This document shows, one piece after another, positions 1 through 57,400 of a stretch of DNA of 64,000 bases. The stretch is taken from positions 1,116,001 through 1,180,000 of the forward strand of contig JAXQJY010000029.1 in NCBI GenBank assembly GCA_037042185.1, read 5' to 3'. A program made the translations under genes and the position numbers. This stretch comes from Sordariomycetes sp. S80-01Y. Lineage: Eukaryota > Ascomycota > Sordariomycetes. The notes below the pieces were generated by a model. It was not told the origin of the DNA. It did not search any database and saw only the letters and a program-made list of their open reading frames with translations. Each line of letters starts with the position of its first letter. Position 1 is the stretch's first letter.

Positions 1-3000
1 ACCATCCTCGACAAGGAGAATTTTACCCTCGAAGAGCTTCTTGACGAGAGCGACTTGATCCAAGAGCTCAAGCAGCACAACACCAAATTGATTGAGTATC
101 TGCGCGAGGACAACATCCTCGAAAAGCTCCTCGACTATGCCGTCGCCCCTCGACTAGAAGTCTTCGAGACGCCCGACGACTCCGCCGACGACGAAGCAAG
201 TGGCACCAAGGGCAAAGGTCGCATACTCTCCTTCGGCCGGCCCCGCGCCTCTTCGCGCGCGACCGACACTACCGAGCCCGACGATGATGAACAGGACAAG
301 AAGCGCAATCGCTATGCCTTTGTAGCGTGCGAGGTTTTGAGCTCCGATACTTGGTCTATCTACGAGGCCCTTACCGAGAATCGCCAACTGGTCAAGGACT
401 TCTGGGGCTTTCTGTCGCGCGAGTCCCCTCTCGACCCACTACAGGCGAGCTACTTCACCAAGATTAACGAGTCACTGTTTGAGAAAAAGACGGATGAGAT
501 GATGGAATTGCTTAAAAGCCTGCCTGACGCTGTTTCGGATCTGCTCAGGCACGTGGAGTGTCCGATGATCATGGATCTGCTGCTCAAGATCATCGCCTTG
601 GACCGTAGCGAAGGGGGTCAGGGTGTTGTAGAGGTATGCCCCAAGACTAATCACGGTGTCTTCTCCCGCTAACGTCTCTTACAGTGGTTATATTCTAAGG
701 ACATCATTCCGACTTTACTCTCTTTCCTCGGCCCAGAGCACAGCTGGGTCGTCCAAACCGCTGCGGGTGACTTCATCAAGGCCATCATTACCATCTCTGC
801 CAATGCATCTCAGAACGAGCAGCAATGCATTGGCCCCAACGAGCTCACGCGACAGCTGGTATCGCGGCCTTGCGTGGAGCAGCTCATTGGGTACATGCTC
901 GGTGGCGGTAACCCTCTTACTGTGGGTGTAGGCATTGTCATCGAAGTCATCCGGAAGAATAACTCTGACTACGACCCTGATGTCGGTACCGGCGCCAACA
1001 CTGTCCCATGCGCCCATGACCCTATCTATCTCGGACACCTTCTACGCTTGTTCGCAGAAAACGTTCCCAAGTTCATGAGCCTGATCATGGGTACTTCGGC
1101 GCAGAAGGATGGAGTCAACTCAACGTTTGGAGAAAGGCTCGAGCCTCTTGGGTTTGACCGCTTCAAGACTTGCGAGCTGATGGCCGAGCTTCTGCATTGT
1201 AGCAACATGGGTCTGCTTAATGAGCTCGGCTCTGAGGAACTGATCTCTGCGAGGGACGCAGAACGCCGCAAACTTCGCACCGAGGGCAAGCTGCACCCAC
1301 GCAAGGAGGAAGATAACTCAGCCGACGAATTGACGATGCGCTCGTCTCAACCACCGCCGCAAGAGGAGAGTCGCAAGTTGGAGGTTACCAACGCAGACGA
1401 TGATGGTTTTGAGGAGGTTGAGCCCAGCAAAGAGATGAGCGAAGATACGTCTCATGAGTTCGTCAAGGCTGAGGATGATATCCCAACAGACAAGTCATCC
1501 TCCTTCCTTGACAAGGACGGAGACGACTTCGTTGACGAGCCGCTCAGCTCACCGCGCTTAGCTGTCGGTGCTGACAAGGTGAATGAGCAAAAGTTTGAGG
1601 ACCCTAGCGCAGTTGTTGCGCCATTGTCCCCTTCCAAACCCAAGGCAGCTGAGCCCTCAACCGCGTCGGAAGAGTCAACCACAGCCCAGCAGGAGCAAGA
1701 GTCCCAGCAACCCAAGGACACTTCCATCGACCCGTCCGCCGCGGATGACAAGGGACTTTCACTTCCAGTCGTCGGCTCAAAGAACACGGAATCGAAAACT
1801 GAGCCTGAGCGTGTCTTGTCTCCTCACCCCGAAGATACGCCTGCTCCCCTGTTCTCAGCACCTCCGGCCCCAGAGTCCGGCGCCGAGAAGCCACCACAAC
1901 TTCCAGAGAGAAGGAAAGAGAGCCAAGACACCCCGGAGCAGGGCATCTCTACCTTGGCCTCGATCGCGAACGCTGATGCAGCAGCTGACACTAACTCTAA
2001 GAGCGAGACGGTCACTGGAGCAGAGCCGGTTGTGGGCGACTTCTTGAAGACGCAATTTGTCGATCATCGCGTCGTCCCAACCATATTGGTACGTTGAGTC
2101 TGTTCCTTGTTGTATACCACTGACCCGAGGTAGTCCTTCTTCTTCTCCTATCCTTGGAACAACTTCCTCCACAACGTTGTCTACGACATCGTCCAACAGG
2201 TTTTCAACGGCCCCATGGACCGAGGCTACAACCCCACATTGGCGGTGTCTCTGTTCGAGGCTGCCGATGTCACCGCGGCCATCATCAAGGGCCAGCAGGT
2301 GAGCGACGAATCTTTCGCCAAGACCAAGACCCGTATGGGCTACATGGGTCATCTCACTCTGATCGCCGAGGAAGTGGTCAAGTTCACTGAGCGACACCCT
2401 CCCGAGCTACTTTCAGAAGCCGTTCTGGACAAGGTCATGAGTCAAGACTGGATCAATTACGTTGAAGGCGCATTAGCCGAGACTAGAGAGAGGGACAACG
2501 CGATTCTAGGTGGCGTAAGACCCGAGGTTGCTCTGGGTCACAGAGGTAGCCTAGGCGGCGGAGGCGGCCTCGGAGGGGTTGGCCTGTCAGGCCTCGGCGG
2601 CAATTCGACGGGCGGCGCATCCAACGCATTGGCAGAAGCTGGCCTGAACGGCGGCATCGAGCTCAACGAAGGCGGCGGCAACGGCATTGGTCCCTTCGCC
2701 ATCAGCGCCGGCACGCTGATGTCAGGCTTCGGCAGCAGCAGCGACGAGGAAGACGACGACGGCGAAGGTGACGACGACGACGTCAACTCAGAGGTGAGTG
2801 GTGATTCCACTGATGATCGCGGACTGGGTAGCTCTGAGGCAAGTGGCATGGCGGCTCAACCCGACACCTTGATGCAGTCCCCGGAGTTCACGATATCGTC
2901 CCCCGATCCCGGAGACGCAGACGTGGATACAGTGATGGAATCGCCCCCGCACTCGCCAGGACTCAGCGCCCGGATCATTGGCGAGGCGGATAACGACGCT

Positions 3001-4074
3001 CCTCCCGCTGACGATCCGTTGATCAACCCACCCACGCCAGAAGAGCGCCGCTCCTAGTTTGGGCAAACGCTCGATGGTGTGCCCGTATCAGCCATGGACA
3101 ATCCGGCAGAAACCCAGCAGCTGCTTGAGCTGGAGCACTTTGACGATGTAGACTTCGACGAATTCACGAGAATACTTGAGCACGTTCGGTTCTAAGGGTG
3201 CAATTCTGGTTGGGCGGCTTTGGTGGTGTACGTTCGAATTGCACTTTTGCGTACCAAACTAAGAGGAGGGCCTCAAGCTGTCATATCTCATCCACGGGAC
3301 AAAGTAGCCATGCCATGCCAGCTCAGATCTCACTCGTCCGGCTCTCATTTTGTCACTCTACGGTATTGAGATGCTGATGCCCTCCTCTAGTTCCGCGCAT
3401 ACACAGATTCCAACAACGCAGATGGGTCGATGGCGCCGCCTTCGATACCTCCACCTCCGCCGCCGCCGCCGCCTCTGAACATCCCGCCTTCTAGAGCAAG
3501 GCGACAGCTTGCTGCGAGGCTGGCGCTGCATCAAAAGAACAACCAACCTGCGGAGTCTTCGTCTGCCTCACTCCACCAAGACGATGATGATGACGATGAT
3601 CTCGATTTGAAAGACCCATTCGCTGACGGCGAGGACGATCTCGATGATGATGATATGCTACGGGAAGACGGGAGGGACACCTGGTGGAGAGGCGTTGTGA
3701 GGAGGAATATCAGCGCCGATGAGAGGGGCTTCGAAGACGGTAACGATGATGATGACGAGTTTGGGGACTTTGCGATGGCTGAAGATGACAAAGAGAGGCC
3801 AGAAGAAGGTAGCGTGCTTCTGAAACCCCTCGCTGTCAACCCAGCAAAGGAAGGCAACAGAGGCCTCAGCGGTCTTTGGCCGTTTGGCTCGAAGAGCGAA
3901 AAGGACAAGCCGGCCGAGGACGACAAAGACGACAAGTCAGCGCCAGTCGACGCCGGCGCTGACAAGACGTCGGAATTGGAACCAGAATCTGCCTCGACGC
4001 CAACGGAAGTCAAGGAGGCCAAGAGGAGGACAAGCATCGAGGACCCAGATGAGGATGAACCAGTCAAGGTCTAG
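1..4074 (+). CDS. SAPS-domain Sit4/PP6 phosphatase-associated protein (5' partial)
   Basis: This is the 3' part of a SAPS-family protein (yeast Sap155/185/190, fission yeast Ekc1), the regulatory partner of the Sit4/PP6 phosphatase. The reading frame is already open at base 1. Exons are 1-633, 685-2088, 2134-2793 and 3391-4074, all joined in phase 0, giving 1,126 residues in the window. The family block is clear: a helical repeat segment at about residues 1-400, then, after a variable acidic/Ser-rich linker, the signature SYPWNNFLHNVVYDIVQQV directly after the intron 2089-2133. The end carries a proline run, the basic stretch RARRQLAARLALHQ and Asp/Glu-rich blocks. The last intron (2794-3390, 597 bp) is far longer than its neighbours and is itself open in frame to a TAG at 3055-3057, so a shorter retained form would end there. 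Family assignment is very secure. The exact C-terminal isoform in use is inferred. Confidence 0.93.
2794..3390 (+). other. Long last intron of the SAPS gene, open in frame, with alternative acceptors
   Basis: The donor GTGAGT follows a GAG codon at 2791-2793. The acceptor CTCTAG at 3385-3390 restores the conserved acidic/proline tail in phase 0. A second potential acceptor, CTCCTAG, ends at 3057 and is also phase 0. It would lead into a 45-codon tail ending at 3195 that is rich in Asp, Glu and Phe. If nothing is spliced, translation runs through to the TAG at 3055-3057. Three C-termini are therefore possible from one donor. Splice-site quality and the resemblance of the tail favour the 3390 acceptor. 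Confidence 0.6.
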
Positions 4075-6877: not shown

Positions 6878-9800
6878 ATGACTGCGCGACCTCAGCCCGG
6901 CAGGGCGCCAACCGAGCTCCCCTCGACCGAATCGAACTCGGAGCGGCTTCTCGTTGGGGTAGCAAAAACTCTCAAGATCTCGCAGGACGACATCACTCTG
7001 ACCGACTCATTTACCGACCTTGGGGGCAACGAGGCATTGGCAGAGAAGCTCGAGGGACGGATGCAGCGGTACGGTGTCAAAGTGACCCAGGGCGACATCT
7101 TGAACTGCAAGACCATGGCCGAGCTGCAGGCGCACGCCAAACCGCTGAACTCTGCGTCGGATTCGTCAAGCAGCGCGACAGACCGATCATCAGCAGACTC
7201 AGAGTCCAGCGACAAAAAGGACGGTGTCTTCACGCCGACGAGAAAGCCTCGTGATCCTGAAGAGTCAGTCTACGGACCACCCCCAAACATGGATTTGAGC
7301 AAGGATCCAGCCGGTCTGAACCCGGAGGAGCCCAGGCAGAAAGAAAAGCCCCCACCAGCGCAGCAGAAATCGGAGAAGGCGATGGGCAAGGAGCCCGCCA
7401 ATATCCAGATCGACATCGAAGATGGCGACAGGACATCAGAGTTGGAGGAATTCCTCTCCTCTGCATCGCGGGGCGAGTATTTCTGTCTGATCAAGTCGTC
7501 CGCAGGGCCCTTTGAGCAGCAATTGGTCGCTTTTGTCAGCGTCAACAACCAGTCTGCAAGTGAGGCAAAGGGCATTTCCTTGCCAGCCGAGAAGGAGTAT
7601 CGGTCGATCGAGACGCGCATCAAGCGATTCCACACGGCTCTGCGAGAATGGGGTGGAAGCGCGCCCTGGCCAGACATCTGGGTTCCCCTGCACTCCATGG
7701 TCACCAAGAGCAATGGCAAGCCCGCGACTAGAGCCTTGCAATGGTGGCTCAGGAATCTAAATGAAGACGTCGAGCAGCGCATCCTGAGCTTGCAGCGTCT
7801 TCTGAGTCTCCAGCTCCTCGATGCCCCGATTCAGGAAGAGAATGAGGGGGAAACTAATCTGGGTTCGGTGCCGACGAATCCAACAAGTGCAGAACCAACT
7901 CCTGCGCCGCAATCTCCGCCGTCGCAGTCGCAGGAGCAGCCATCCTACACGCTCTCACAGCAGCAGGCTGCAACCGAGCAACATGTGCGGAGCGGATCGC
8001 GAGGCCAGCCTGACATTGTTGTCTTCAAGCCTGAACCTATCCCGGAGGAAGACGAACCCGAAGAAATTGAGATCGCGCTGCAGGAAGCAAAGGCGGTCCC
8101 GGCCCAGAGGGTCAAGCCTGCACACGTCGACGCGGCGCCAAGAGACTCACTGGTGCGGACAAGATCGCGATCCTACTCGCAGAAAGACTCTCTCATCATT
8201 CAGCAACGTCTCTCTACGACCCGGCCAGACAAGACCTTCTCCATGTTTATTGAAGATGAATCCGGCAGACTTCATATGCATGAGCAGATGGGCGACACTC
8301 CCGACGATGTCGAGTTCTTCCCACTTTCTGCTATGCAGCAGCTCTTCTTCCGCACCTCCATGAACCTCAACCCACAGCCCAACTCCATCACCGAGCCGGG
8401 TTACCGTTTTAGCCAAAGTGTCCTTCTCAGAATCAAGGCCGAGCTTCAGTCCACGGACGTTGAAGCCGCCGTTGAGCATCTGGTTGACCGCCATTCTATG
8501 CTCCGATCCCGCTTCAGACTTACAAGTGAAGGATGGGCACAGGTTATTCTGCCACAGACTGCAAATTCCTACCGATATGGACACCACCAGGTCGACCACA
8601 GCGACGACATTGCTGGAGTTACTGAGCGTTCACACGCGTCAATCAACCCCATCAGCGGCCCCGTTTTCTCTGCCGAACACATCCGGACTGGAGACGGAGA
8701 CCAGTATATATTCCTGGCCTGCCACCACTTGGCAGTAGACCTGGTATCATGGCGAGTGATCATCCACGACATGGATGAACTGCTTCGCGACGGCACTCTG
8801 CTGTCGAACCCTTCTATTCCCTTCTCCAACTGGATTGAGTACCAAGGCTACGAGTCAAGCCACAGGCTCGTTCAGCCTAAGCTTCCATTCGAGATCTCGC
8901 CTCCCAGTCTAGGCTACTGGGACTTAGACTTGGAGGAGAACCGATATGGCAACACCCAACAGTTCAGCTTCTCACTCAATGCCGAGCTCACTCATACTCT
9001 CCGTACAGCATGCCGCAACGTGTTCAGAACGGAGCCGGCGGACGTGTTTTTGACAGCCCTGCTGCTGTCATTTTGCCAGACGTTTCCCGATCGCGAGGCC
9101 CCCACAATATGGACTCAAGAGCATGGTCGAGAGACCAAGAATGAGGACTTCAACATCGACGAGACGGTCGGCTGGTTTACCTCGCTCTGCCCGATCAGTC
9201 TGATGTCCAGTTCCGATGCAGACATCATGGAGCTCATGAAGCTGATGAAAGACACTCGTAATGCCATCCCCAATTCTGGCATACCATTCTTCAACACAGA
9301 GTTCTTGACTCCTTCCGCTCCCTTTACCACTATTCCAGTTGAGGTGCTCTTCAGCTGCGTCGACAAGATGCACAAGCTGCATCATAAGGATGGCGTGCTG
9401 GAGCCTGTCCCCGGGCCCGGACGCACTACTGACACCGTCACCTCCGATATTGGCCCAGATGTCGGACGCATCGCCTTGTTTGAAGTTGCTGTCGCCATCG
9501 AAGACGCCGAAGCCACAGTAGAAGCCCTGTATATCAAACCACAACGCCAGGACCGCATCGAGGAATGGATGAAGCAATTCGAATCCTTGGTTATGGTGGC
9601 TATCGGCAAACTTAAGACGATGGGCCCTGAGCTTACATTGGCTGATGCGCCATTGCTGAAAACCACGTACCAAGGCCTCTCTAAACTTGCGCAGAGCGGA
9701 CTTGGCGAGCTCAACCTGGACAACGTTGGCGAGATTGAGACCATCTACCCGGTCAACCCCTCTCAGCAGGAAATTCTCATAGCACAAAGCATGAACCCAG

Positions 9801-12800
9801 AGAGCTTCTGGATACACAGCATCTACGAGCTGAGCACTGCCGAGCGTAAGCCTGTCAGCCAAGGCAGGCTCTGCGCTGCGTGGGGCGCCGTGGTTGCGTC
9901 TCATATGGCTCTTCGCAGTGTCTTCAATGACAGTATAACCGAGGACGGTCTGTTCGATCAAGTCGTTCTCAAGAAGATCTCGCCCGACATGTTGTTCCTC
10001 GACAGTGAGCAGCCCGTCGAGACTCTCATGAGCCTGCCAGCCATGAAGACTGCCCCTGGCCGCCCGAGGCACAGACTGTCCGTTTGTAAAACCGCGACCA
10101 AGACCTACCTGAGGATCGATGCCAGTCAGGCTATTTGCGACTCCCTCGCTGTGGACAACTTGGTCACCCGATTGCGCATGGCATATGCCGATGAGGAGTG
10201 CGAGTCCGATGATGACACCATGCTTCTCCAGACGTGGCTCTACAATGCCAAAACAACAGACACCTCGCAGAACCTCGAGGCCTGGAAAGGCATCCTGGCT
10301 GATTCGAAACCCTGCAACTTTCCTTCCCTTGCCGTCAAGCCGAATGACTTGAGCTCGGTTCAGTCTAGCTCTTTTGGCCTCGAGATCAAATGTCAAGAGC
10401 TCCAAGAATTTTCCCATCATCGGGACGTTGAGGTCGTCCATGTGCTTCAACTTGCTTGGGCAATTGTGCTGCGCGCCTACATCGGGACTGACCAGGTCTC
10501 GTTCGGGTATGAAGTTTCCGGTCGAGATGAGGAGCAGATGCCGGGCATCAAGCACGAAATCGGCACCTTTGCTGCCCTGACGCCATGCACTGTCGAGCTT
10601 TCGCCAGGCAGAACCATCATGGAGTGTCTTCAGAGCCTAGTCGAGATTTCCACCGTTGCCCGCGCTGGTCCGCAACCGACCATTGCTGAGATCCAGCATG
10701 AGATGAAGCTGAACACTGAAGATCTCTTCAACACTTGTCTCTCAATGCGCGACTTTGACAACGCCAGGCACAAGTATCCCGAGCTCGACGAACTAAGCTT
10801 CAGGTCCAATATGGTCACTTCGTCCCGTGTCTCGGACTGCGATCTGTCTCTATCTACCATGTTCATTGACGACCATCTTCACATCGACTTTGCATTCCGC
10901 CGCATCACACCCACGCAGGCGCAGAACATAATGCATACATTCGAACGCGCCACCCGTCTTATTCTTGACGACCCAAGCCAGAACATTTCTGGCACTGATC
11001 TCTTCACCGATCGCGACTATGCCCAAATGGTGGTTCAGGACTTCGAGTTCAGTCAGGTTGGGGAGAAACATAACTCAACGGTTCACCAGCTTATTCTACC
11101 TCACGCTCAAAAGCTACCAGAGGCACCCGCCATCTGCGCCTGGGACGGGAATATGACCTACCACCAAATGGTGTACTGCGTTTCCACGCTCGCCACATAC
11201 TTGAGAAACATTGGTGTAACACCGGGAGTTGCCGTCCCCGTAGTTATGGAGAAAAGCAAGTGGGCGCCGGTCATTATGTTGGCTGTACTCAAGGCTGGTG
11301 GTGCCATCGTGTGCCTCGATGCCGGGGACCGCCATGTCGTCGAGGCCACCGTCAAGCAGCTTAACTCCCGCATTGTCGTTGCGACGGACTCGGCGTGGAA
11401 CGACATCGTTTGCATTGTCCCGAATCTGGTCATTGTCAACGAGCGTTTCTTCTCAATTCTACCGCCTCAGGTGTCGATTCCAGTTCGCGACCCGAGCCCT
11501 GACCATGGTGCCTGCGTTATGTACGCGCCGAAATCCAGAACGGGTGCCTCCAGAAGTTTGTTCTTCACACACGCCTCCCTCTGTGCTGCCTTCATTGCCC
11601 AAGGACCAGCGCTGAAGTTGAATAGGAACAGCCGTGTTCTCCAGCTGTCTTCCTTCAACGCAGACGTGGCTCTTGTTGAAATTCTGGGAACGATGGTTCA
11701 TGGTGGATGCGTCTGCATCCCTTCAAATAAGGACAAGCAGAACAACCTGGGCGGCGTCATATCTAGTATGAACGTTACTTGGTCTTACATGACTTCGACG
11801 CTGGCTCGTCGTATCAACCCGGCCCAAGTGCCTAAGCTGGAGACCATCTGCTTCCGCACGCGTCGTTTGGATGAGGACACTCGCGCGGCTTGGATGCCTA
11901 GCCGAAACATCTTGCTGGCTTACGGTGCGCCGGATGTCTGCCCTCTGGGCATCTCCATCGCCGAGGTGTCTGAGGTTTCCAATGTTACCATTATTCCTCA
12001 ACCTCTTATGGGCCGTTTCTGGATTCTGAATCCTGAAGACCCCAAAAAGCTCATGCCCCTCGGCGCCGTCGGCGAGTTAGCCATTGACTGCCCGCTTTTG
12101 ACGCCTCACAAGTTCCACCCTAGCCAACCTGTTCAGGCCGCTCCTCAAGCTGTCGATCACGCTGAGAGGCCATCACGGCTGCGCTATCTGAAGACTGGTC
12201 ACCGTGTGCGTTTCCTGGATGACGGCAGCATCCAGTTCCTGTCTAGCATGCGCGATGATGTGTTCATTGATGGGTCTCGCATATCGGTGTCGGACATTGA
12301 ACACCATCTGCGTCGCTGCCTCGGTTCCAAGTTCGACATTGTTGTCGAGTCCATCACGACGAGTGACTCTGTCCAACTACTGGCTGCCTTCCTCGAGCTT
12401 GGCGACGAATTGGAAGGGGGCTCAGACGACGTAGAGAAGCTTCGTACCCAAACCAAGGAGCGCACACAACTCGCGAAAGCACTTCGCCGTGCTTCAGCCT
12501 CTAGTGGCCGCGTTAAGGGCTTGACTGCGGAACAGATTCCTTCTGTCTTCATTCCCTTGAAGCAGTTCCCAATGTCGACTTCGCTCAAAGTCAACCGACG
12601 CAAGCTCCAGAAGATGGTGTCTGCCATGACATACCAGCAACTTCTTGGTGTATCCACCACCGCCAATGCGGATGAGGCTGAAGCTTCCGAGAAGCCCCTT
12701 CCCTTGACGCACGTCGAGGAGCGAATGAGGCATGTCTGGGCGGCGGTGCTGGACATTCCTCCCGCAAAAATTAAGAGCAATGACAGCTTCTTGACTCTAG

Positions 12801-15253
12801 GCGGAAATAGGTTCCTTGCTGCCAAACTCGCTGTTGCTGCGCGCAGGTCTTCTCTCCAGGTGAACTTGAAAGACATTCTGCGCGGTGCAACTTTGACTGA
12901 GGTCTGCCAAGCGATGGCCGCCTCGGAAATCGTTCCATCGAACCACCACCTGACTGAGCCTCGACTTGATCAGAAAGAAGGGTTTAAGATCCCGGGCATC
13001 GAGGAGAAGCTGGTCAAGGACCATCTCGCCCCGCAGCTCAAAGTGCATCATCGCGAAATCACAGATGTGGCGGACGCCTCTGCATACCAAATTCATGGCC
13101 TTGAGACTCGGATGTACGGAGAGAAGGGAGGCATCAAGTGCCTTGTCTTCAACTTCAACGGGCCCATCCGCTCGCAGAAGCTTCAAACTGCTTGCGAGAC
13201 TCTGAGTCGACTGCACCCCATTTTCCGCACTGGTTTTGCCGTGCATGATCGAAGGGTCTACCAGGTCCTGCTGGACGGCTTCCGCCCCGAGTTTCAGCGT
13301 TTCCCCTGTCCAGCTTGGTGCTTAGGCAGTGTTGCAGACAACGTCATTTCTGAGGACCAGACGGTCGAGTACAAGCCCGAGGAGCCGGCGACCAAGTTCA
13401 CCTTCCTCGACGCTGGTCAGCAGAGCACTCTCGTCCTTCGCCTGGGTAGTGCCCAGATTGACGAGGCCTCCGTGACGCTACTTGTGCAGGATTTGGCCGC
13501 GCTGTACGAAGGGCAGGGCAACGTTGCGTCCAAGCCCAACTTCTACGAGTACATGCGGTCGGCCAACACCGCCAACAGCAAGGACTCTGCCAAGTTCTGG
13601 AGGGAGAGATTAGATGGTGCCAGGATGACCCAATTCGTCTCTCATCCCAAGCCCTATCCCCCTGCATCCGACGTCAAGAGTCTGTACCAGACTATTCAAA
13701 TCGACCCTGTCGCTGAGTATGGCCTTAATTTTGGCACTGTTCTCAAGGCTGCCTGGGCTATCGTCTTGGCCCAGTATGCTGCCGAGTCCGATGTCGTCTT
13801 TGGTGAAGTCACTCACGGTCAGAACATTCCCCTACCTGACCATTTCGACATGTCCTCCATGATTGCGCCTACAACGAATGTCATCCCCGTCCGCGTCAAG
13901 TTCTCGGACGACCAAGATTCCCCCCTTGACTTCATGCGCAGGGTTCAGGAGCAACGCGCCGCCGCTCGTCCTCACGAGGGTATGGGTATCCTGGAGATGG
14001 TTCAGCGCTGCACCGACTGGCCTTACTGGACTCGCTTCAGCACGGTCGTCCACCACCGACACCAGCCTCCCCTGGACGGCGCTACGACGCTCAACATGGG
14101 CGATACCACATTCACCCACTCGGTCATTGAGCCGGGCATGCAAGACGCCCCGGATCTGATGGTTCTCACGACCATGGATGGTCCCCAAACCGTCAATTTC
14201 GAACTCCGCTACTCTGAGAGTCGCGTATCAACTAAGATGGCTGAAGATGCTCTTCGAGTACTGACCATCGCGGTCGATATGATTACAAGCTACGATACCA
14301 TCGAGAAGCCCATGGTGCAATCCGCCATTGAAATCACCCGCTCTCCCGCTCAGATTCCTCTGCCTTCAGCCGTTATCGGCCCAGATGCCCAGCATTCGAA
14401 GTCTCACCAATCTCTTCCTCATGATGAGCGACAGGCTCTCCAGTCCCTCATCTCCGCTGTTTGGGCCGATATACTCGACCCCAGATCCCTAGGCGTACCA
14501 GAGGACCAAGTTCACAAAGCCAACTTCTTCGACCTGTGGGGCTCAGTCCTTCCTGCCCAGACCTTTGCGAATCGCATCAACGCCGAGTTCGTGAAGCAAC
14601 CCATCAAAGGTCTTCACAAGCTGCACGTTACGCCCGCTGAGATCATACAGTATCCCTCCATGGCTGGCCAGTACGAGCTCATTGTCAAGAAGATGACCGA
14701 TGCAGGCATCATCCAAGGCATAACCCGCCGCAAACCCGTCATGTCCTGGGCCCAAACCCCGGGTGACCGCTCTGCGACTCCCACAGAGGGTAAGTGGGAT
14801 GACCGCAAGGGCTCCGTTCGAAAGTCCGCCTTGGGTAAACTCCGCGGTCTCCAGCACTCGGGCTCAGTCCGTGACCTGGGATCGAAAGCGGGAGACTGGG
14901 TTCGTCGTCACCGCAGCAGCAAGAAGGAATCAGTCGACGCCGGGCCTAAGGGTGTCTCCATCGGCGAACCTGTGCCCACGGAGCTCCCGCCCCGCGCTGC
15001 TGAGCTGAGGAACGAACACTACGAGAATGGCGGTAGGGATTCGCCGATTCAGAACGAGGGGAGGAGCCCTACCCCGTTGATGTTCAGGAGCAATACGCCT
15101 GGGCCGCTGAGTCCGTCGCCTGATCCACCCGAGTTGGCGGTGTCCCCAATGTCACCGCCGGGGCCTAGTCCGAGGAGGGCGAGCGGGGATAGTGAGGATA
15201 CGGAGGAGGACGGGCCAGTCAGTCCTCTGGGGCCGGCTTGGTTGGCAATTTAG
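6878..15253 (+). CDS. Degenerate NRPS-like multidomain protein (2,791 aa, intronless)
   Basis: A single uninterrupted frame with NRPS architecture. Visible domains: carrier-like (about 22-85); a low-complexity linker; a stretch like the C-terminal end of an adenylation domain (about 240-300); an epimerization-type domain (about 475-905) with H616-H617-xxx-D621 and the EHGRE block; a condensation-like domain (about 955-1390); an adenylation-like domain (about 1400-1930); a carrier (about 1950-2020); a second condensation-like domain (about 2060-2480); a terminal carrier (about 2520-2600); and a Ser/Pro/charged tail. The phosphopantetheine serine is missing in all three carriers (E52, R1978, V2557 at the aligned positions). 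The first C domain has SQ (1083-1084) for HH and the last has S2191 for the key His. The A3 loop (1546-1563) has lost its Gly/Ser/Thr pattern, and the A7 Asp is H1775. The A10 lysine region is kept. Peptide synthesis in the ordinary way therefore looks impossible, yet the frame is intact. It faces the OPT transporter tail to tail. Confidence 0.9.
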   Translation: MTARPQPGRAPTELPSTESNSERLLVGVAKTLKISQDDITLTDSFTDLGGNEALAEKLEGRMQRYGVKVTQGDILNCKTMAELQAHAKPLNSASDSSSSATDRSSADSESSDKKDGVFTPTRKPRDPEESVYGPPPNMDLSKDPAGLNPEEPRQKEKPPPAQQKSEKAMGKEPANIQIDIEDGDRTSELEEFLSSASRGEYFCLIKSSAGPFEQQLVAFVSVNNQSASEAKGISLPAEKEYRSIETRIKRFHTALREWGGSAPWPDIWVPLHSMVTKSNGKPATRALQWWLRNLNEDVEQRILSLQRLLSLQLLDAPIQEENEGETNLGSVPTNPTSAEPTPAPQSPPSQSQEQPSYTLSQQQAATEQHVRSGSRGQPDIVVFKPEPIPEEDEPEEIEIALQEAKAVPAQRVKPAHVDAAPRDSLVRTRSRSYSQKDSLIIQQRLSTTRPDKTFSMFIEDESGRLHMHEQMGDTPDDVEFFPLSAMQQLFFRTSMNLNPQPNSITEPGYRFSQSVLLRIKAELQSTDVEAAVEHLVDRHSMLRSRFRLTSEGWAQVILPQTANSYRYGHHQVDHSDDIAGVTERSHASINPISGPVFSAEHIRTGDGDQYIFLACHHLAVDLVSWRVIIHDMDELLRDGTLLSNPSIPFSNWIEYQGYESSHRLVQPKLPFEISPPSLGYWDLDLEENRYGNTQQFSFSLNAELTHTLRTACRNVFRTEPADVFLTALLLSFCQTFPDREAPTIWTQEHGRETKNEDFNIDETVGWFTSLCPISLMSSSDADIMELMKLMKDTRNAIPNSGIPFFNTEFLTPSAPFTTIPVEVLFSCVDKMHKLHHKDGVLEPVPGPGRTTDTVTSDIGPDVGRIALFEVAVAIEDAEATVEALYIKPQRQDRIEEWMKQFESLVMVAIGKLKTMGPELTLADAPLLKTTYQGLSKLAQSGLGELNLDNVGEIETIYPVNPSQQEILIAQSMNPESFWIHSIYELSTAERKPVSQGRLCAAWGAVVASHMALRSVFNDSITEDGLFDQVVLKKISPDMLFLDSEQPVETLMSLPAMKTAPGRPRHRLSVCKTATKTYLRIDASQAICDSLAVDNLVTRLRMAYADEECESDDDTMLLQTWLYNAKTTDTSQNLEAWKGILADSKPCNFPSLAVKPNDLSSVQSSSFGLEIKCQELQEFSHHRDVEVVHVLQLAWAIVLRAYIGTDQVSFGYEVSGRDEEQMPGIKHEIGTFAALTPCTVELSPGRTIMECLQSLVEISTVARAGPQPTIAEIQHEMKLNTEDLFNTCLSMRDFDNARHKYPELDELSFRSNMVTSSRVSDCDLSLSTMFIDDHLHIDFAFRRITPTQAQNIMHTFERATRLILDDPSQNISGTDLFTDRDYAQMVVQDFEFSQVGEKHNSTVHQLILPHAQKLPEAPAICAWDGNMTYHQMVYCVSTLATYLRNIGVTPGVAVPVVMEKSKWAPVIMLAVLKAGGAIVCLDAGDRHVVEATVKQLNSRIVVATDSAWNDIVCIVPNLVIVNERFFSILPPQVSIPVRDPSPDHGACVMYAPKSRTGASRSLFFTHASLCAAFIAQGPALKLNRNSRVLQLSSFNADVALVEILGTMVHGGCVCIPSNKDKQNNLGGVISSMNVTWSYMTSTLARRINPAQVPKLETICFRTRRLDEDTRAAWMPSRNILLAYGAPDVCPLGISIAEVSEVSNVTIIPQPLMGRFWILNPEDPKKLMPLGAVGELAIDCPLLTPHKFHPSQPVQAAPQAVDHAERPSRLRYLKTGHRVRFLDDGSIQFLSSMRDDVFIDGSRISVSDIEHHLRRCLGSKFDIVVESITTSDSVQLLAAFLELGDELEGGSDDVEKLRTQTKERTQLAKALRRASASSGRVKGLTAEQIPSVFIPLKQFPMSTSLKVNRRKLQKMVSAMTYQQLLGVSTTANADEAEASEKPLPLTHVEERMRHVWAAVLDIPPAKIKSNDSFLTLGGNRFLAAKLAVAARRSSLQVNLKDILRGATLTEVCQAMAASEIVPSNHHLTEPRLDQKEGFKIPGIEEKLVKDHLAPQLKVHHREITDVADASAYQIHGLETRMYGEKGGIKCLVFNFNGPIRSQKLQTACETLSRLHPIFRTGFAVHDRRVYQVLLDGFRPEFQRFPCPAWCLGSVADNVISEDQTVEYKPEEPATKFTFLDAGQQSTLVLRLGSAQIDEASVTLLVQDLAALYEGQGNVASKPNFYEYMRSANTANSKDSAKFWRERLDGARMTQFVSHPKPYPPASDVKSLYQTIQIDPVAEYGLNFGTVLKAAWAIVLAQYAAESDVVFGEVTHGQNIPLPDHFDMSSMIAPTTNVIPVRVKFSDDQDSPLDFMRRVQEQRAAARPHEGMGILEMVQRCTDWPYWTRFSTVVHHRHQPPLDGATTLNMGDTTFTHSVIEPGMQDAPDLMVLTTMDGPQTVNFELRYSESRVSTKMAEDALRVLTIAVDMITSYDTIEKPMVQSAIEITRSPAQIPLPSAVIGPDAQHSKSHQSLPHDERQALQSLISAVWADILDPRSLGVPEDQVHKANFFDLWGSVLPAQTFANRINAEFVKQPIKGLHKLHVTPAEIIQYPSMAGQYELIVKKMTDAGIIQGITRRKPVMSWAQTPGDRSATPTEGKWDDRKGSVRKSALGKLRGLQHSGSVRDLGSKAGDWVRRHRSSKKESVDAGPKGVSIGEPVPTELPPRAAELRNEHYENGGRDSPIQNEGRSPTPLMFRSNTPGPLSPSPDPPELAVSPMSPPGPSPRRASGDSEDTEEDGPVSPLGPAWLAI

Positions 15254-15998: not shown

Positions 15999-18745
15999 CT
16001 AGTGGAACTCGCCGATCCGAGGACCAAAGTACTCGCCCTCGGCCTTGTTGAGCGTCTTCAGCGTGCAGGGCGTGCCCTCGCAACCGTCGTAGGGAACATC
16101 ATTGCCCCACCAGTTGAACTCGGTCTCCGTCCACTGGATGGCGAAGAAGATGATGATGCCCGAGATGGCGATGCCGCATGACCAGGCTGCTGAGAGGACA
16201 AAGTTGTACTGTGTGCTGTCAGTAAAGAACACGGATGAAACATGTGAATCGAAGAACGTACCTTGGACCACAAGCCTAGGAAGCGAGACTTGAGGTAGAT
16301 CCACGACAGGTAGGCAATGGGCACGGAAGGCCAGACGTAGGACATATTGTACGGCGCCCAGACGATGCCGCCGTACATGATGGCGACAGGGTGGATCTGG
16401 CGGGCCCATGTCCACTTGGGGAACTTCTTGTGCAGAATCCAGAAGAAGACGACGATGGCCACGCCAAGCGGGAAGCCGAGCAGCGTCTCGGTGTACTGCC
16501 CGTTGGCTCCCCAGATCTTGGTGGGACCGACGGTACCCCAGAGGACGGAAGCAGTGAAGAAGGTGTTGACTCCGGGACAGGTGAGGCGGAACTGGGCGTC
16601 AGGCGTGCAGACACCGTCGATGTGGCGCATTTGGAAGTTCAACACGCCAACGCAGACGAGAGTACCAACGAAGGTGGCGACCATCTGGGCGGTGAAGGTA
16701 TGACGGGGTGGAATCTTGACATAGTGGGCGAGCTTGAGGTCGTTGGAGAACCAGACGGCGTGCGCGCAGGTCACATAGCCAAAGGACTTGAAGTAGTTCA
16801 TCGCCAGGGCGTTTCCTTCGACGAAGGAACCACCAATGAACTCGGCCAAGACGTTTAGAGTGACTTCGATACCGGTCATGGCCTTGATGATGCCGACAGG
16901 GATCACGAAGACGACGCAGAGAGCCAGACCATAGAAGACGACGCCCGGCGATGTGTTGGTGTCCCAGCCCATGATGCCAGCGATACCAAAGCCGATGGCA
17001 ATGACAAGACAGGTCATGTACCACCATTCGGGCACCTCGGGGTAGCTGCGCATGAGCCGGTGGTGAACGTCGAGGACGGCTTCGTCGGCGGCAGGAGCCT
17101 TCTTTCTGCGCATGCTGTTCCACAGGCCTTTGAATCCCGTCATCATCTCACGGCGGTGGTAGAGGAAGGCGTATGTCAGGGTCGAGGTGTACACGCCAAA
17201 GAAGAACATGTAGATGACAACATTGCCGGCACCGAGGAACGGAGGCGAGTACTGCTCGTATTTTTCGGCATCGAAGAGTCCCTTTTCGTCGGTTGCGAGA
17301 GTGACGTTGTAAAGCTCGCCAAAGTGGTCGTACACACGGTTGGTGTTGATAGGCAGGTAGCCAGTGTTGTAGACGTTCTTGTACCAGATGGCGAGGACAA
17401 CCCAGAGCGAAGCAAAGGCGCCCAGGAAGCGGTTGATAGTGCTAAAGAAGGGGACCATGAGCGGGTCGGATGAGTCCCAGAGGAGGGTGTTCCAGTCCCA
17501 GGTGGGGAAGGGGTTGACGCCCAGACCGTTGTTGAAGCCGGTGATCGTGTTCAGGTGCAGATTGGTGGGGGCGATCCAGGACATCCAGCTAAATTTGGAC
17601 AGGGCAATGGCGATGTAGCCAGGGAACCAGAACCAGACGAACATGGCGCCGAACATCAAGTAGAAGAACTTGATGCGAGACATGCGCCACGTGGTGCCCA
17701 ATGGTCCCTGGACCGGAGTGTTCTCGCCAGTGTGGAAGGCCGAGTTGAGCGCAATGGTGACCAGGGAGGCGGGCCAGACGCAGTAGGACGGGTAGACAAT
17801 GAAGCGCCGGCACATTCCAGCCATTCCGTAACCGATGAAGTTGGTGCTCAGCGCGATGAGAATCTGGTATCCGGCATGCGCAGCGTATGGCTGGTTGAAG
17901 TACTGCGGCAAGTACTGCACCCAGATAATGTAGTTCGTGTACGGAGTGTTGTATGCGACATTGGCCATTATGGTAATGAGCATATGCTCTTTCCGGTGGA
18001 AGGGCCCTGGGTTCAGTGTATGCCGCACTCCGAACAGCGTGAATCCCTTATCCGGCAGCCAGGTCTCGCTTGCCTTTCCCAGGGGGTAGGCAAGTAGTTG
18101 CGCGACGTTGGCCATGACGCGGATGGTCGGTTGGCGGATGTCAAATAGCTGGTTGACGAAGGCCAGCACCAGCGAAAACATCAATCCTATCGCCCAGCTT
18201 CGGATGGTGGAACACGGGGCATCGATTTCGTCTCGGTTGTCGACAACGGCTCGGACTTCGGCGTAGGGGCTGTTGGTCGTAATGAGGGCGGCCTCGAGCT
18301 TCATCTCGCGAATCAGATGCTCATGCTCCACGTACTTGTACTTCTCGTCGTCGACATTTTCTTGCGGTATGAAAAGGTGGTCATTGTCGAGAAACGCCTT
18401 GATCTTTTGCAGAACGACAATCGGAAAATTGGGGTCGAATTCGTGGACTCGGTGGACGCGGACCATGATGTCGCGCACTTCGGCCAAAGTCAATTTATCC
18501 GCCAGTTCTTGCGCCTCGAGCAGGTCATCCTCCGTGACGTGGAGGTCCTGGCCCGCCCGCTGCGGCACCTCTGATTCTTCTTCATATTGGTACGGAGGCT
18601 CGAAGCGTAGATCGTCGTATGATGAGGGCGTCGAAATGTGCTCGAACGGAGGAGGCGCACCGGAGGCGGCGGGTGGTGGGGGAGTAGGGAGGTTTGTGGC
18701 CTCTACTGTCTCGCTTGGTAGCCCTCTCTTCTCGTCGTCGGCCAT
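15999..18745 (-). CDS. Oligopeptide transporter, OPT family
   Basis: A proton-coupled OPT-family transporter, expected in the plasma membrane or an endomembrane and importing small peptides or peptide-like compounds. Exon 1 is 16262-18745 and exon 2 is 15999-16208, with a 53-bp intron (GTACGT donor, ACACAG acceptor), giving 897 residues. Family marks are the segment NPGPFHRKEHMLITIMAN (about residue 240), KIPPRHTFTAQMV (about 676), many Trp/Phe-rich membrane segments, and the C-terminal SKYNFVLSAAWSCGIAISG that is rebuilt exactly across the intron. The N-terminus is a charged cytosolic tail. I chose the ATG at 18745 (MADDEKRG), which has a good GCCATGG context. An in-frame ATG at 18832 would add 29 Pro/Arg-rich residues. 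It converges on the NRPS-like gene, so a shared role is possible but unproven. Confidence 0.93.
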
Positions 18746-21489
18746 GGCGATTCGCGGCGGAGGCGGAGGCGAAGGCGAGACGCGATAGAGCCCAGCGCGA
18801 GCGTCGTCGTGCCTCGTCGAGGCTCTTGTCAAGTGTCGCGAGATTCGCCGTCCGTCGTCGCAATGCCGCAGTGTCGGATATCGAAGTGGAGGCCCAGCCG
18901 CAGTCTATGCGAGTGAGGAATTCGGGCGAACGAAGCGTCGCCAATAAGGAGCGAATGCGTCGATGGCAGCCTGTCCGTCGTAATTGAGGCTGGAGGGGGG
19001 AAGGGGAGGAGAAGGGTCGTGGCGTGTCGTTCGTGAGGTAAAGTTGTTGATGGGAAAGATGGCCAGAGGAAGGGGAAATGGAGAGCGCCAAGTCGATCAA
19101 TTGGGTGGCAGATGCAGTGGAAGGACTCGGACGCATCAGCAGTGGATTGACGGGGGGACGAGGATAGGATAATATCGAGGAGACCAAAGGAATGGGAGCG
19201 ATTTGATGGAGGGGGGAGCACAGCACTGACAGGCGAGATTTACAGGGCATCTGGGGAGAATACAGCGCCTCCCAGGCGCCGTGGCGGGCCGTGACATTCC
19301 ACCAGTGGCTTCTTGGGTCCGAAGTGGGCGACATGCCAAGACGGATCACGGAAGGCATTGGGGCCCGCACACTGTGTCGCTCGATAGTCACCAATAACTC
19401 TCGACACAGCTTGTTCTTGTGCCGCTCAGGATGCCGGCATGCTGCAGCGGTTCAGAGTAACCGTTGCCAAATCCGTGACTGAGTAACAGGTCGTGTTAAG
19501 AGTCTCGTACATGTATATCTCCTCTGACAATGGCCGGTCAGAGCTGCTTTCTTCGTGTCCCAGGGCACAGCCAGCACGGACAGTGTGGCACCGCAGGGGA
19601 CTGTGCTGGCCTCTGGCGACGACCCCAGATTCGAGATTGATGCTCCCCTCAGCTCAAGACTAACTCCCATCTCATTTGGCACCAGAACGGCAAAATCGGC
19701 TCTGCTATCGCTGCTCTGGTCAATTGCCGTTGATACTGCAGATGACAAAGCTGTCAGTATCACTGCCTCCCGCCCAGAGAACTCCCCAGAGCCAGTGGAC
19801 ACCGTCAGCTGGTGGCAGCCCGTCAGTCCATCACTCGGGCTCATCGGCACGCGGCGAGACAGCGGCCCTGGATCTGGCTCGCAGCCACCCAATGGGTGCC
19901 AGCCGTCTATAGAGGAATCCAGCAGGGGCCACGCGCGACGGATCGAACGGCACCTCGTTCGTTACTCGTCACGAGCGAGCCTCGACAAGACCCGGCTGTT
20001 CGGCACAGCCCGCAGCGACACAACGCTGCACTATGAAGTAGCCACTGCACTGCTGCAAGGGGCTTCTGGTTGTCCTCGACGGCACACTGCACTGCGAAGC
20101 ACCCAGGTCTCAGCAGAGCCTCGAGCCTCAGTTATCATTCGGTGAGCCCTGCCTTGCCTGCCTGACCCTTAGAACCCCTCCCCACTGTTAAGCTTATGGG
20201 GCGGAACCAGGCTTGTTCTAACCATTGCGAGGTTGGCATGCGCACTGAGGCTGTGCCAACTCCATCTCGACCCATCCCGAACTGTGTCGAGCACACGGAG
20301 CGCATGGCCTTTCACGAACCGTGCCGTGTCTTCGCTACTACTCGGTACAGTGTGGTATTACTAGGGCCGTCTGGAGAACATGTCTGGACCCCTCATCTGT
20401 CGGGCTCCAAATTTCGAGTCCGCGCTCGCAAGCTGGCCTCAGCCGCCAAAGCGGTGTCGAAATCTCGGGTACATTACCACAGACTTGGCTTGGCGTCGCT
20501 CCAAACAGGACAAGACATCCAGCAGACTGAGGTGCACGTTGCGAACAGCGGTTAGCCGGCACTCCGAGATCGACTCAGCTACTGGGCGCCGGTGTGCTCT
20601 CGCCCTGGATTATTTGAGGTTGGTTCCATGACTTGGATATTATTACTCGTGCAAGACGAAAAGGACCCCGGATCTGCCATCCGTGATCCGCAGGACACCA
20701 ATGACACCAGGTCTCGAATCTTCAGCCACGACTGGTCGCCGGTTATGGAAGGTGGGCTCTAGGCTCTGATCGGCAAGGTTCCGGCCTCGCCTTCGCTTCA
20801 GCACTGGAAACCCCCGACTCGCGCAATACCCTGGTTGAATGGTGCTTGAGGCATTACCTCGCGCAAAGCATTCACCTACATGTTGATTCATCGCCTACGC
20901 TCGAATACCAAGATGCCTTCCATCACGACCTCGATTGGCCCCCAACTCCTACATTTCAAGTACCGTAGAATAGGCTGCACGTGTCTCAGACTGCAACGTG
21001 ACTGGACCATGACTTATACAGGATTGCTTCTCTGAGCCTCACACTCCACCTGCCGAGTCATGAGCTGACGACGCGCATGGCCACCCTTATCGATAAAGTC
21101 TCGTCGACTTCAACGACCCGCATCAAGCTTGGCACTGCAGTTGTTATTGAGCATCCCACGGGAAGTGGTGAACAAGGCCAAACACCGCCAAGGTTGGCGT
21201 GCTCGCCGAGAGCTTGAATCATACGGTGATTTCCCGGAATGCCAAGTCAATTATCCTTACGCTGGAGCTCACCGACACGATTGCGCACCCACATACTCGC
21301 GGTTGGTGCGCCGACAAAACAGAGTCGAGGTTGACTAGGAAGGAATTGGTGTCGCGGAGACAGGGAGTCCTTCAAGATTTGTCCGGAAAGCTCCCTGCAA
21401 TTGAAGTGATCCCAACTTTCTGGACAGAGCCGGGCGACTTTGCTGCTACAAAGCTCTTACGCTCTGCGCCATGATACAGGCGCCCCGAT
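18746..21489. other. Intergenic region between the OPT gene and the SDR gene
   Basis: About 2.7 kb with no supported gene. The part next to 18745 is the OPT promoter and leader, with GGAGG/GAAGG-rich stretches. A 196-codon frame at 19555-20145 has no recognisable domain and is treated as chance. Confidence 0.5.
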
Positions 21490-54482: not shown

Positions 54483-57400
54483 CTACTGAGCGGCATTCTG
54501 GTTGTTGGCAGCATCTCCAACACAATATAGATCAATCTCTCCTACCCCGCCAGAGTACATACTCTTCATTCCCTCTCTCCATTCCATGAACGCTATTTGG
54601 ATGTCGTCGTCGCTCTGAATAACAATGTAATCACCATCCTCGTCCCGATACTGCAGCTTCAACATCCCCTTGCCGATGCTGTTGCCTGTGAATCGGGCGA
54701 GCTTGGCGTCGATGCGGTCGATGAGAGACTGGTAAGAGATGTTGAAAGCGACCACGAGGGTGACGTAGTTTCCACTGTCGAGGTTGACGCGTACTTTGAG
54801 CTGGGTTGGGAAGGGCATCTCGGACTGTTGCTGGGACATGGGGTTTGACGTTGGTGGTGCGAAGGTGCCGGTGCCGAGAGCGGGGGATACGGTTCTCGAG
54901 TTGGCAGCCATGGAGTCTATGCGCATCGGATTGCCGCCAGGAGGAGGGTTCGGGGTGTTGCCTCTTGAATAGACCGGCTGGGTTGGGAACTGACCCATTT
55001 GTCCTCCGAGGCTGCCCGAGTGCTGGTGCATGCGCTCGCGCTGTGCACCGGGACTTTGAGTGTTGGTGCGGATGGGAATGTCGTTGCGGGGTGATCCTGT
55101 CTGCGAACGGGGAATGGTGTTGTCGTGGTGAAGATGTTGAGGGATGCCGGGTACTGCGGGTACATTTCCGCCCTGACTTGGTTGTCGTTGGCGAGGGCCG
55201 CCCGGACCGTTGATATCAGGTGTACTATAAGACCGACTTCGTTGTTGCTGCGCTGCGCTGTTTTGCGTTGCCATCGCTGGCAGAGAAGGGCCGCGTGGGT
55301 TCCTTCCATTCATGCCGTGAGGCCCAGGCGAAGTCCCATCCCTCGAAGGAGCTCGAGGCATGGCCGGGGCGGTGTATCGTTCATGCTGATCCCACATGGG
55401 CTGCGGCGTCCCGGTCTTTGAGCCTGTGTACATCGGGAACATGCCACTGGCAGTGCTAGTCCGCGATGAAGCCGGTGAGTTGTCGACAGGTGAGAAGTAG
55501 CTGTCCCCTCCCCTGGACCCTGGCGACACGGCGCCGCTGTTCTGGGTCTGAAGGCTGAGTGGTGCTGGTGGGTTCGGAATAGGGAAGCGTGGCGGTGGTG
55601 CTCTTGCAATGCCGGCCAGTGATTGTGAGCTGTCGCCTGTCGCAGATCGCTGCCGCAAGCTCGAGCTCGATGAGGTTCGAGGCATCACAGAGTGCTGTCC
55701 TGGCATGGGAAACTGCGCAGGTGCGGTTGCGGGTCCATCGTACTCATCCTCGTCCTCATCCTGCTGCTGGAGGTACGGGTTCTCCAGGGCTCCAGCTTGC
55801 TCACGAGTCCATGTGAAATCCTGCTGCATCGACGAGTCCGGGCCGGCTGACGATCGAGGTCCATTCTCCTTACGCTGGTTCTCGAGACCGTCAGCCCACT
55901 TTCGCATGGTGTCCTCGTTCGGGAACTTGATGGTAAAATTCTCAACCCCGGGGTCGCCCTTCCACCAAATCTGAACGCTGTGCGATCCGGTGCCTTGTGA
56001 TTCAGTTAGGACCCTGTGAGTGAGAGAAATCTTGTGGTAGACTCACCAGGCTTCGACATTGACAAGATATCCGTGACGTTGGTCATGAAGATCCTACCCT
56101 TCAGATGCAGCTTCGCGTTCCGGTTTCTCATCCTCGGTCCAACAGAGCGAGTCTTGTCTTTTTTATCCTTGCTCTTGTTGGGTGACACCTCCTTGCAGCA
56201 CAGTAGGATGCACTCGAACAGGTAAATCTCATACTACCGAGAGTCAGCAAAGTCACACCTTCAACTAGGATGTCGCGTACCTCTTTCTCCTGATCGCTCT
56301 TCCCTGTGATTACACCGTGTACACCATGCATCAGTAGCTTACCGAACTGCTCCACTCGGTGGCTCTTCCAGTCATCTACACGCACAATAAGGTCTTCCAG
56401 CGCTTCATCCAGCAAGTCTCGGTTGACTGCCTCGTTCGCCTTGTACAATACTCTTTCAGCCGCCTCAAATCCACCTTGAAGGTCGGCTTTGATCTCCTCG
56501 TCCTCGGTCTTCTTGTGAAGATCTTTAAGAAGCATGGGATACTTCACCAGTCGCTGCATAGGCTTCAGGAGAAACCCGTCAAGCGTGTTGAAGTCAAACG
56601 CCACGGGATGCTGAGCCGTTTGAATGCTTTCGAAGTGCTTCTGCGCCACCGTGGCCGCTTTCCGCTGGTTTGCAATAAAGGGTTGGTAGATATCGAAAGC
56701 GTCCTCGTACATAATCAACGGAGACCCCCATTTCTGGGTAGGCCCAGGCATCGAGTTGGTCGTTTCGATACGAATGAGGAAGCGCCGCTGAAAGTCAAGG
56801 ATTGCGTTGATGTTGAGAAATATGGAATGAACCACGTCTCCCGGTATCGCTCCCTTTTGCTCTAGCGTCGTCTTGAGGTCATGTAGGTTCTCCAGGTCCT
56901 GGACGTACTTGCGCTCTGTGTCCACCAGCTCCTTGATAATGTGATCGCGATGTGTCATCTGGGTCTTCTGACCAGCCTCGGGTGGACCGTCATCGGGGTA
57001 CGGCTGTAGTTGAAGAAGCAAGCCACGCTGCTCGGCGAGATCGAGAACGTAATTCACTACTTGCGTGACCTGGTTGCTTTAGCTTCTGGAAGGTTATCTT
57101 CCCAAGGTAATCTCACCTTCACGAAACCACTCGTGTCATTGCCCATCAGATCTGTGACCACAAAGCTATCCTGCGGGGGGACCTTCAGCTCGTCCATGCA
57201 CGCCTTGACAAACTTGAAAATGGCTATTTTCGACCTTTTCGCTTCAGACGCATTATCGTCAATCTTGAGCGGCGTTGGCGGCTGTAGCGAGTTGTAGACA
57301 TGCACTAAGGGATGTCCTGTTCGTAGCAGGTCCCATAATGCGTCCACGGGGTCTAAAGGGTCGAGTTGCTCTAGGTAGGGCTCGAAGCCTGGCACCTGCG

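What the first reader, a model, noticed from the sequence alone, without database searches (positions are those of the whole stretch)
6878..15253. Giant NRPS-like protein with every carrier serine gone but a fully open 8.4-kb frame
All three carrier motifs lack the phosphopantetheine serine (E52, R1978, V2557), both C-type domains lost their catalytic His pair, and the adenylation core A3 and A7 motifs are altered. A pseudogene of this size would be expected to collect stops; this one has none in 2,791 codons. That suggests a protein kept for a non-synthetic role such as scaffold, binding protein or regulator of another synthetase: a pseudo-megasynthase.
Basis: partly seen in the sequence, partly recalled or inferred. 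Interest (0 to 1): 0.75.

Follow-up and report, generated by a model that had tools for sequence, protein, structure and literature searches.

The report
Dead peptide-synthetase gene kept fully open
A fungus carries an intact 2,791-residue gene descended from a peptide-making enzyme, with an active-site residue changed in each recognised domain, so the protein has probably been kept for another job, such as holding other proteins together.

Summary
Window 6878-15253 (+) is one open frame of 2,791 codons in a 30.9-Mb fungal genome, NRPS-derived: T1 - A-subdomain remnant - low-complexity linker - E - C1 - A - T2 - C2 - weak T3 - tail. Against domains from four NRPS ORFs of the same genome, carrier serines are E52, R1978, V2557 (Ser in 43/43), condensation histidines are Q1084, S2191 (His in 42/42), and A3, A5, A7, A8 are broken. 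Neutral decay fails: simulated drift to 53% residue retention gives 31 or more stops; the gene has none. Flanking genes are SAPS and OPT; no cluster seen. A probable relative is in print: Scedosporium SAPIO_CDS8684 (2,708 aa, E-C-A-C, no carrier domain, annotated pseudogene), 45-49% identical to Colletotrichum/Verticillium proteins. Best reading: an old, selected, non-synthetic NRPS-derived protein, perhaps a scaffold. No fungal orthologue could be searched; conservation rests on that paper.

The parts
6878..15253 (+). whole open frame, 2,791 aa, NRPS-derived; no intron needed (gene model from the frame only, no transcript seen)
6917..7150 (+). T1 carrier domain (residues 14-91), Ser replaced by Glu52
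   Evidence: 31.3 bits with a profile without P0001, 0 of 1,000 shuffles reach it; Ser in 43 of 43 controls
7514..7741 (+). remnant of an A-domain C-terminal subdomain (residues about 213-288); the core half of the A domain is missing
   Evidence: 7.4 bits alone, best 3.0 in 500 shuffles; 3.7 bits in the whole protein. AF2 single-sequence model of 169-310 has order H-E-E-H-E-H-H but pLDDT 48; Foldseek no match at E<=0.001
7775..8329 (+). linker, residues 300-484, disorder-prone by composition
   Evidence: composition only
8330..9682 (+). epimerization (E) domain, residues 485-935; HHxxxD kept, EGHGRE Glu replaced by Gln747
9725..11038 (+). C1 condensation-type domain, residues 950-1387; His replaced by Gln1084, DG replaced by DS
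11072..12625 (+). adenylation (A) domain, residues 1399-1916; A3, A5, A7 (Asp to His1775) and A8 broken; Asp1596 (A4) and Lys1904 (A10) kept
12695..12928 (+). T2 carrier domain, residues 1940-2017; Ser replaced by Arg1978
   Evidence: 61.5 bits, 0 of 1,000 shuffles reach it
13049..14347 (+). C2 condensation-type domain, residues 2058-2490, grouping with terminal C domains; His replaced by Ser2191, DG replaced by DE
14414..14653 (+). possible third carrier domain T3 (residues about 2513-2592); Ser position Val2557; weak
   Evidence: 4.3 bits, 2 of 1,000 shuffles reach it; AF2 single-sequence model of 2498-2605 mostly helical, pLDDT 64; Foldseek no match at E<=0.001
14675..15250 (+). C-terminal tail, residues 2600-2791, disorder-prone by composition, 12 SP/TP sites
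   Evidence: composition only

Best explanation
The gene descends from an epimerizing multimodular NRPS, near the E-C-A-T-C parts of a synthetase like the 7,644-aa ORF on the same contig. Each domain scored has lost a residue needed for thiotemplate chemistry: the carriers have no serine for phosphopantetheine, the A domain has lost its ATP-site motifs, both C domains lack their His and the E domain its Glu. The frame was kept by selection on the protein. Inferred mechanism: the C, E and A folds act as non-catalytic binding platforms (as the X domain, a dead C domain, does for P450 enzymes), joined by a flexible linker and ended by a flexible tail rich in SP/TP sites that could be regulated by phosphorylation; so a scaffold or binding protein outside any gene cluster. 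Shown here: domain order, lost residues, open frame, failure of neutral decay, neighbours. Inferred: that it is expressed, that the domains fold, and what it binds.
For: Key positions lost in 7 of 7 domains scored, T3 included. No stop in 2,791 codons, whereas neutral drift to 53.5% retention gave 31 or more stops in 100 of 100 runs. Drift from domains of the C12 NRPS to the same loss at conserved columns was stop-free in 0 (A), 4 (E), 10 (C1) and 4 (C2) of 200 runs each. In the A domain 85 of 91 hydrophobic columns stay hydrophobic, more than in any of 200 neutral runs. The two RIP indices are unremarkable. SAPS and OPT neighbours, no cluster seen. Probable relative of like order and size without carrier domain in Scedosporium, 45-49% identical to Colletotrichum/Verticillium proteins (PMC6737921 section 16). 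X domains as dead C-domain platforms (PMC8949500 passages).
Against: The hydrophobic-column test does not separate E (45 of 200 neutral runs reach the observed value), C1 (106 of 200) or C2 (19 of 200). P0001 has the longest tips of the A, C and E trees and scores below every full-length control in the A, C and E profiles (the controls are members of those profiles), which also fits relaxed constraint. The Scedosporium relative is annotated pseudogene, and the 7-of-67 likeness of its T region inside a 94% match suggests to me a frame disruption. No expression data, no orthologue alignment, no binding partner.
Confidence: 0.6

Rival explanations
1. A recent pseudogene: the gene lost its function lately and has not yet had time to collect stops.
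For: Long tips; the Scedosporium relative is annotated pseudogene.
Against: 29 of 59 columns that are at least 95% conserved in control A domains are changed, too much for a young neutral gene: at 2% nucleotide divergence a neutral copy still keeps 95.7% of residues and already has 4.87 stops on average.
Confidence: 0.12
2. It keeps one unusual enzymatic activity, for instance in the E domain (HHxxxD intact) or the A domain (Lys1904 and Asp1596 kept), acting on a free or trans-supplied substrate.
For: E keeps 59 of 81 conserved columns (judged on only 4 control sequences, so the column set is inflated); A4 Asp and A10 Lys kept.
Against: Glu to Gln747 in the E domain; A3 loop and A7 Asp lost; no serine on its own carriers.
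Confidence: 0.13
3. A partner or regulator of an active NRPS of the same genome, docking to it in trans through its dead T, C and E domains.
For: Its C and E domains are nearest to those of the 7,644-aa and 5,972-aa NRPS ORFs.
Against: Not clustered: nearest other NRPS match listed on the contig ends about 568 kb off; flanking genes are SAPS and OPT.
Confidence: 0.15

Closest known systems
Scedosporium apiospermum SAPIO_CDS8684 (PMC6737921; section 16 read in full, passages elsewhere)
   Same: 2,708 aa against 2,791; E-C-A-C order; no recognised carrier domain; 28-29% identical to A. fumigatus PesM/Pes1/Pes3; relatives at 45-49% in Colletotrichum and Verticillium
   Different: Annotated pseudogene and placed in an 11-gene, 44-kb cluster; its C, E and A active sites are not described in the section read; identity to P0001 not computed, the sequence was not on hand
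Epimerizing multimodular fungal NRPS (7,644-aa ORF on contig C12; I recall this type as NPS4/Pes1-like, not tested)
   Same: E, C1 and C2 of P0001 group with its E, post-E C and terminal C domains; 29% identity over residues 510-2376
   Different: Its six T domains have the serine and its C domains the second His; P0001 has neither
X domain of glycopeptide NRPSs (PMC8949500, passages)
   Same: A C-type domain with a mutated HHxxxDG motif that serves as a recruiting platform
   Different: One bacterial domain inside a working assembly line, not a whole multidomain protein
Inactive A domain complemented in trans (albicidin type; PMC8949500, passages)
   Same: A non-functional A domain kept inside an NRPS
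   Different: There a stand-alone A-T module supplies the monomer; here no carrier has its serine

Membership tests
Functional NRPS | Carrier domain with phosphopantetheine serine | tested here: not met
   E52, R1978, V2557 against Ser in 43 of 43 controls; T3 itself weakly recognised
Functional NRPS | Condensation domain with the second His of HHxxxDG | tested here: not met
   Q1084 and S2191 against His in 42 of 42 controls
Functional NRPS | A domain with A3 loop, A5 Glu, A7 Asp, A8 hinge | tested here: not met
   (A7 Asp in 41 of 41 controls, His1775 here)
Functional epimerization domain | HHxxxD and the EGHGRE glutamate | tested here: not met
   HHxxxD kept; Glu (4 of 4 controls) is Gln747
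NRPS-derived protein (homology) | Condensation, AMP-binding and PP-binding domains | tested here: met
   Pfam 254, 79.9 and 45.7 bits, each above its cut-off
E-C-A-C carrier-less proteins like SAPIO_CDS8684 | Same order and size, no functional carrier, sequence relationship | tested here: inconclusive
   Order and size agree with the paper; no sequence comparison was possible
Pseudogene | Internal stops, frameshifts, neutral drift | tested here: not met
Conserved protein under purifying selection | dN/dS below 1 among orthologues | not testable with these tools
   no fungal relatives on hand; scans of virus and prokaryote collections confirmed no relative

The most novel reading that the evidence does not exclude
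A whole megasynthase lineage, spread over several orders of Sordariomycetes, has become a pseudo-megasynthase: the thiotemplate chemistry is gone and the multidomain frame has been kept over long evolutionary time as a scaffold or sensor with a cellular role outside secondary metabolism.
Probability: 0.4. Interest if true: 0.75.

Novelty: new variant of a known kind. Interest (0 to 1): 0.5.

Why it matters
Pseudoenzymes are known among kinases and others (recalled), but I found no description of a multidomain NRPS with a key residue lost in each scored domain and the frame preserved. The nearest case in ten full-text searches of the open library (most hits seen as listings only) is a paragraph that finds its fungal relative's lack of a carrier domain surprising; that gene is annotated pseudogene. 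If the family is conserved, genome mining counts such genes as orphan synthetases and looks for products that cannot exist, and the protein offers a test of how an assembly line is turned to a structural role.

Tried and rejected
Orthologue search: no fungal relatives were on hand. The search for related loci with P0001 in viral contigs (5 pattern matches) and genome contigs (7 pattern matches) confirmed no relative; neither collection is fungal.

Structure: AF2 on two short stretches without an alignment gave low confidence (pLDDT 48.1 and 64.3) and Foldseek against the PDB gave no match at E<=0.001 for either; these neither support nor refute the subdomain-remnant and T3 assignments. A paralogue alignment was not sent to structure prediction because its stated rule does not list loci from the genome search. 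A search for a T domain after the C12 ORF gave nothing (best -1.5 bits).

A biosynthetic cluster was rejected on the neighbours (ten ORF pieces of the window scanned with Pfam, not every gene). 'E-C-A-C' in PMC7179677 (passages) is part of larger synthetases. PMC3694855 and PMC6480918 (passages) gave no architecture to compare in the passages seen. PMC3688495, PMC6367777, PMC4517408 and PMC2823734 (passages) did not mention this protein in the passages seen. Supplementary files were not opened.

Rows left out: pieces above E 1e-5 or under 70% of the model length were not used as controls. The last profiles were built from 42 A, 44 C, 5 E and 45 T pieces, P0001's own included; the final searches listed 43, 52, 8 and 45 hits. 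After removing P0001 the controls are 41 A, 42 C, 4 E, 43 T. They come from four ORFs (contigs C12, C2, C6, C11); other NRPS ORFs of the genome were not fetched.

Full report
What is there. Window 6878-15253 (+) is one open frame of 2,791 codons. The window lies at C12:1116001-1180000 of a 30.87-Mb, 16-contig genome. The genome holds matches to A domains in open frames of up to 21,803 codons, which fits peptaibiotic-rich Hypocreales (PMC4517408, passages, gives up to 21,000 residues for such synthetases); this is inference. Pfam finds Condensation (254 bits, three stretches), AMP-binding (79.9 bits) and PP-binding (45.7 bits, two stretches).

Anatomy. Profiles built from domains of four NRPS ORFs of the same genome give the order T1 (14-91), E (485-935), C1 (950-1387), A (1399-1916), T2 (1940-2017), C2 (2058-2490). 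With P0001 left out of the profiles its domains score 346.5 (A), 351.9 (E), 152.4 and 167.1 (C1, C2) bits, below every full-length control (A minimum 602.9 of 41; E minimum 704.6 of 4; C minimum 320.4 of 41); the controls are members of those profiles, which raises their scores. Residues about 213-288 match the end of the A-domain profile at 7.4 bits when residues 92-484 are scored alone, where 500 shuffles reach 3.0 at most; in the whole protein the score is 3.7. So an A-domain remnant probably lies between T1 and E. T3 is weak: 4.3 bits, reached by 2 of 1,000 shuffles, while T1 (31.3) and T2 (61.5) are reached by none. Residues 92-170, 300-484 and 2600-2791 hold 76, 61 and 65% of residues E, G, K, P, Q, S, R, D, against 45% in E and 44% in A; the tail has 12 SP/TP sites. 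No disorder predictor was run.

Active sites. Carrier serine: Glu52, Arg1978, Val2557 against Ser in 43 of 43. Condensation His: Gln1084 and Ser2191 against His in 42 of 42; the Asp of HHxxxDG is kept in both, the Gly lost in both. E domain: His616, His617 and Asp621 kept; the Glu of EGHGRE, present in 4 of 4 controls, is Gln747, and the alignments to PvdL and tyrocidine synthase 2 chains agree. I recall this Glu as catalytic in tyrocidine synthetase; that was not tested. A domain: A3 TSGSTGxPKG reads APKSRTGASRS, the A5 Glu is Asp1686, the A7 Asp (41 of 41) is His1775, the A8 Arg and Lys are Ser1790 and Phe1796, while A4 Asp1596 and A10 Lys1904 are kept. Its 'His pair' does not fit either: the six control C domains that form a clade with C1 and C2 have S-H or N-H.

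Descent. In a FastTree of 42 control and 2 own C domains, C1 joins four post-E C domains (support 0.999) and C2 joins the last C domains of the C12 and C2-contig ORFs (0.994). E joins the last E domain of the C12 ORF (0.928, only 5 tips). A falls in the same neighbourhood with support 0.48. P0001 has the longest tips in the A, C and E trees, so long-branch effects are possible. The best match in its own genome outside itself is 29% identical over residues 510-2376.

Decay or selection. Random substitutions with the window's base make-up were applied to the gene. At 53.5% residue retention the mean number of stops is 48.55, minimum 31 of 100 runs; at 2% divergence the mean is 4.87, and some runs have none. 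Observed retention at columns conserved in at least 95% of controls is 30 of 59 (A), 59 of 81 (E), 14 of 19 (C1) and 12 of 19 (C2). Starting from domains of the C12 ORF and drifting to the same loss, stop-free runs were 0, 4, 10 and 4 of 200. Indels were not modelled, which favours the neutral case. Hydrophobic columns stay hydrophobic in 85 of 91 A-domain columns, above all 200 neutral runs; for E, C1 and C2 the measure does not separate (45, 106 and 19 of 200 runs reach it). So the frame was kept by selection, and fold retention is supported for A only. RIP indices are 0.44 and 1.33, against 0.61 and 1.24 for the window; by the usual thresholds, recalled, this is not RIP.

Surroundings. Pieces at 1-603, 697-2082 and 2134-3054 (+) match SAPS (SIT4-associated protein); 16262-18751 (-) is an OPT transporter. 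Further on are an SDR, a transcription-factor match just under its cut-off, a Vfa1 piece, RhoGEF and PH/PB1 pieces that I read as one Cdc24-like gene, and a WD-repeat protein (ten pieces scanned, not every gene of the window). Nothing there looks like a biosynthetic cluster. The nearest other NRPS match listed on the contig ends at C12:555013, about 568 kb away (17 of 129 candidates scored).

Known relative. PMC6737921 (passages; section 16 in full) describes SAPIO_CDS8684 of Scedosporium apiospermum: 8.1 kb, 2,708 aa, E1-C1-A1-C2, 'surprisingly no peptidyl carrier domain', 28-29% to A. fumigatus PesM, Pes1 and Pes3, 45-49% to uncharacterized NRPSs of Colletotrichum and Verticillium. I take it as a probable orthologue on size, order and distance; I could not compare sequences. 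Against my reading: it is annotated pseudogene; it is placed in an 11-gene cluster; and a 94% identical sequence from an Aureobasidium assembly has a recognised T domain with only 7 of 67 positions alike, which suggests to me a frame disruption in one of the two.

How it may work. X domains are C domains with a mutated HHxxxDG motif that act as platforms for P450 enzymes (PMC8949500 passages). By analogy the dead C, E and A domains here may bind partners, with the linker and tail as flexible, possibly phosphorylated arms. This is inference; no partner, transcript or orthologue alignment was available. Alternatives are an in-trans partner of an active NRPS, a residual odd activity, and recent decay.

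Verdict. The finding is real and corrected in detail. It is best called a pseudo-NRPS, a new variant of a known kind with one probable relative in print; the scaffold role is a reasoned guess.

Noticed in passing
G000:C12 about 534116-557047 (loci L017-L019): A 7,644-aa NRPS ORF with order A-T-E-C-A-T-C-A-T-E-C-A-T-C-A-T-E-C-T-C; after its last E-C there is a T with no A domain found between.
   Followed up: partly
G000:C2:19674-24038 (locus L015): An NRPS match with one TAG and one TAA inside; it runs past the upstream end of the 5,972-aa ORF on that contig: intron, assembly error or decay.
   Followed up: no
window 9068-10555 (-): A 495-aa open frame antisense to the E and C1 region of the gene; perhaps a shadow of codon usage.
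   Followed up: no
window 19926-20017 (-): tRNA-Asp (gtc), the one tRNA found in the window.
   Followed up: no
window 54483-57075 (-): RhoGEF, PH and PB1 pieces in order, read as a Cdc24-like polarity gene.
   Followed up: no
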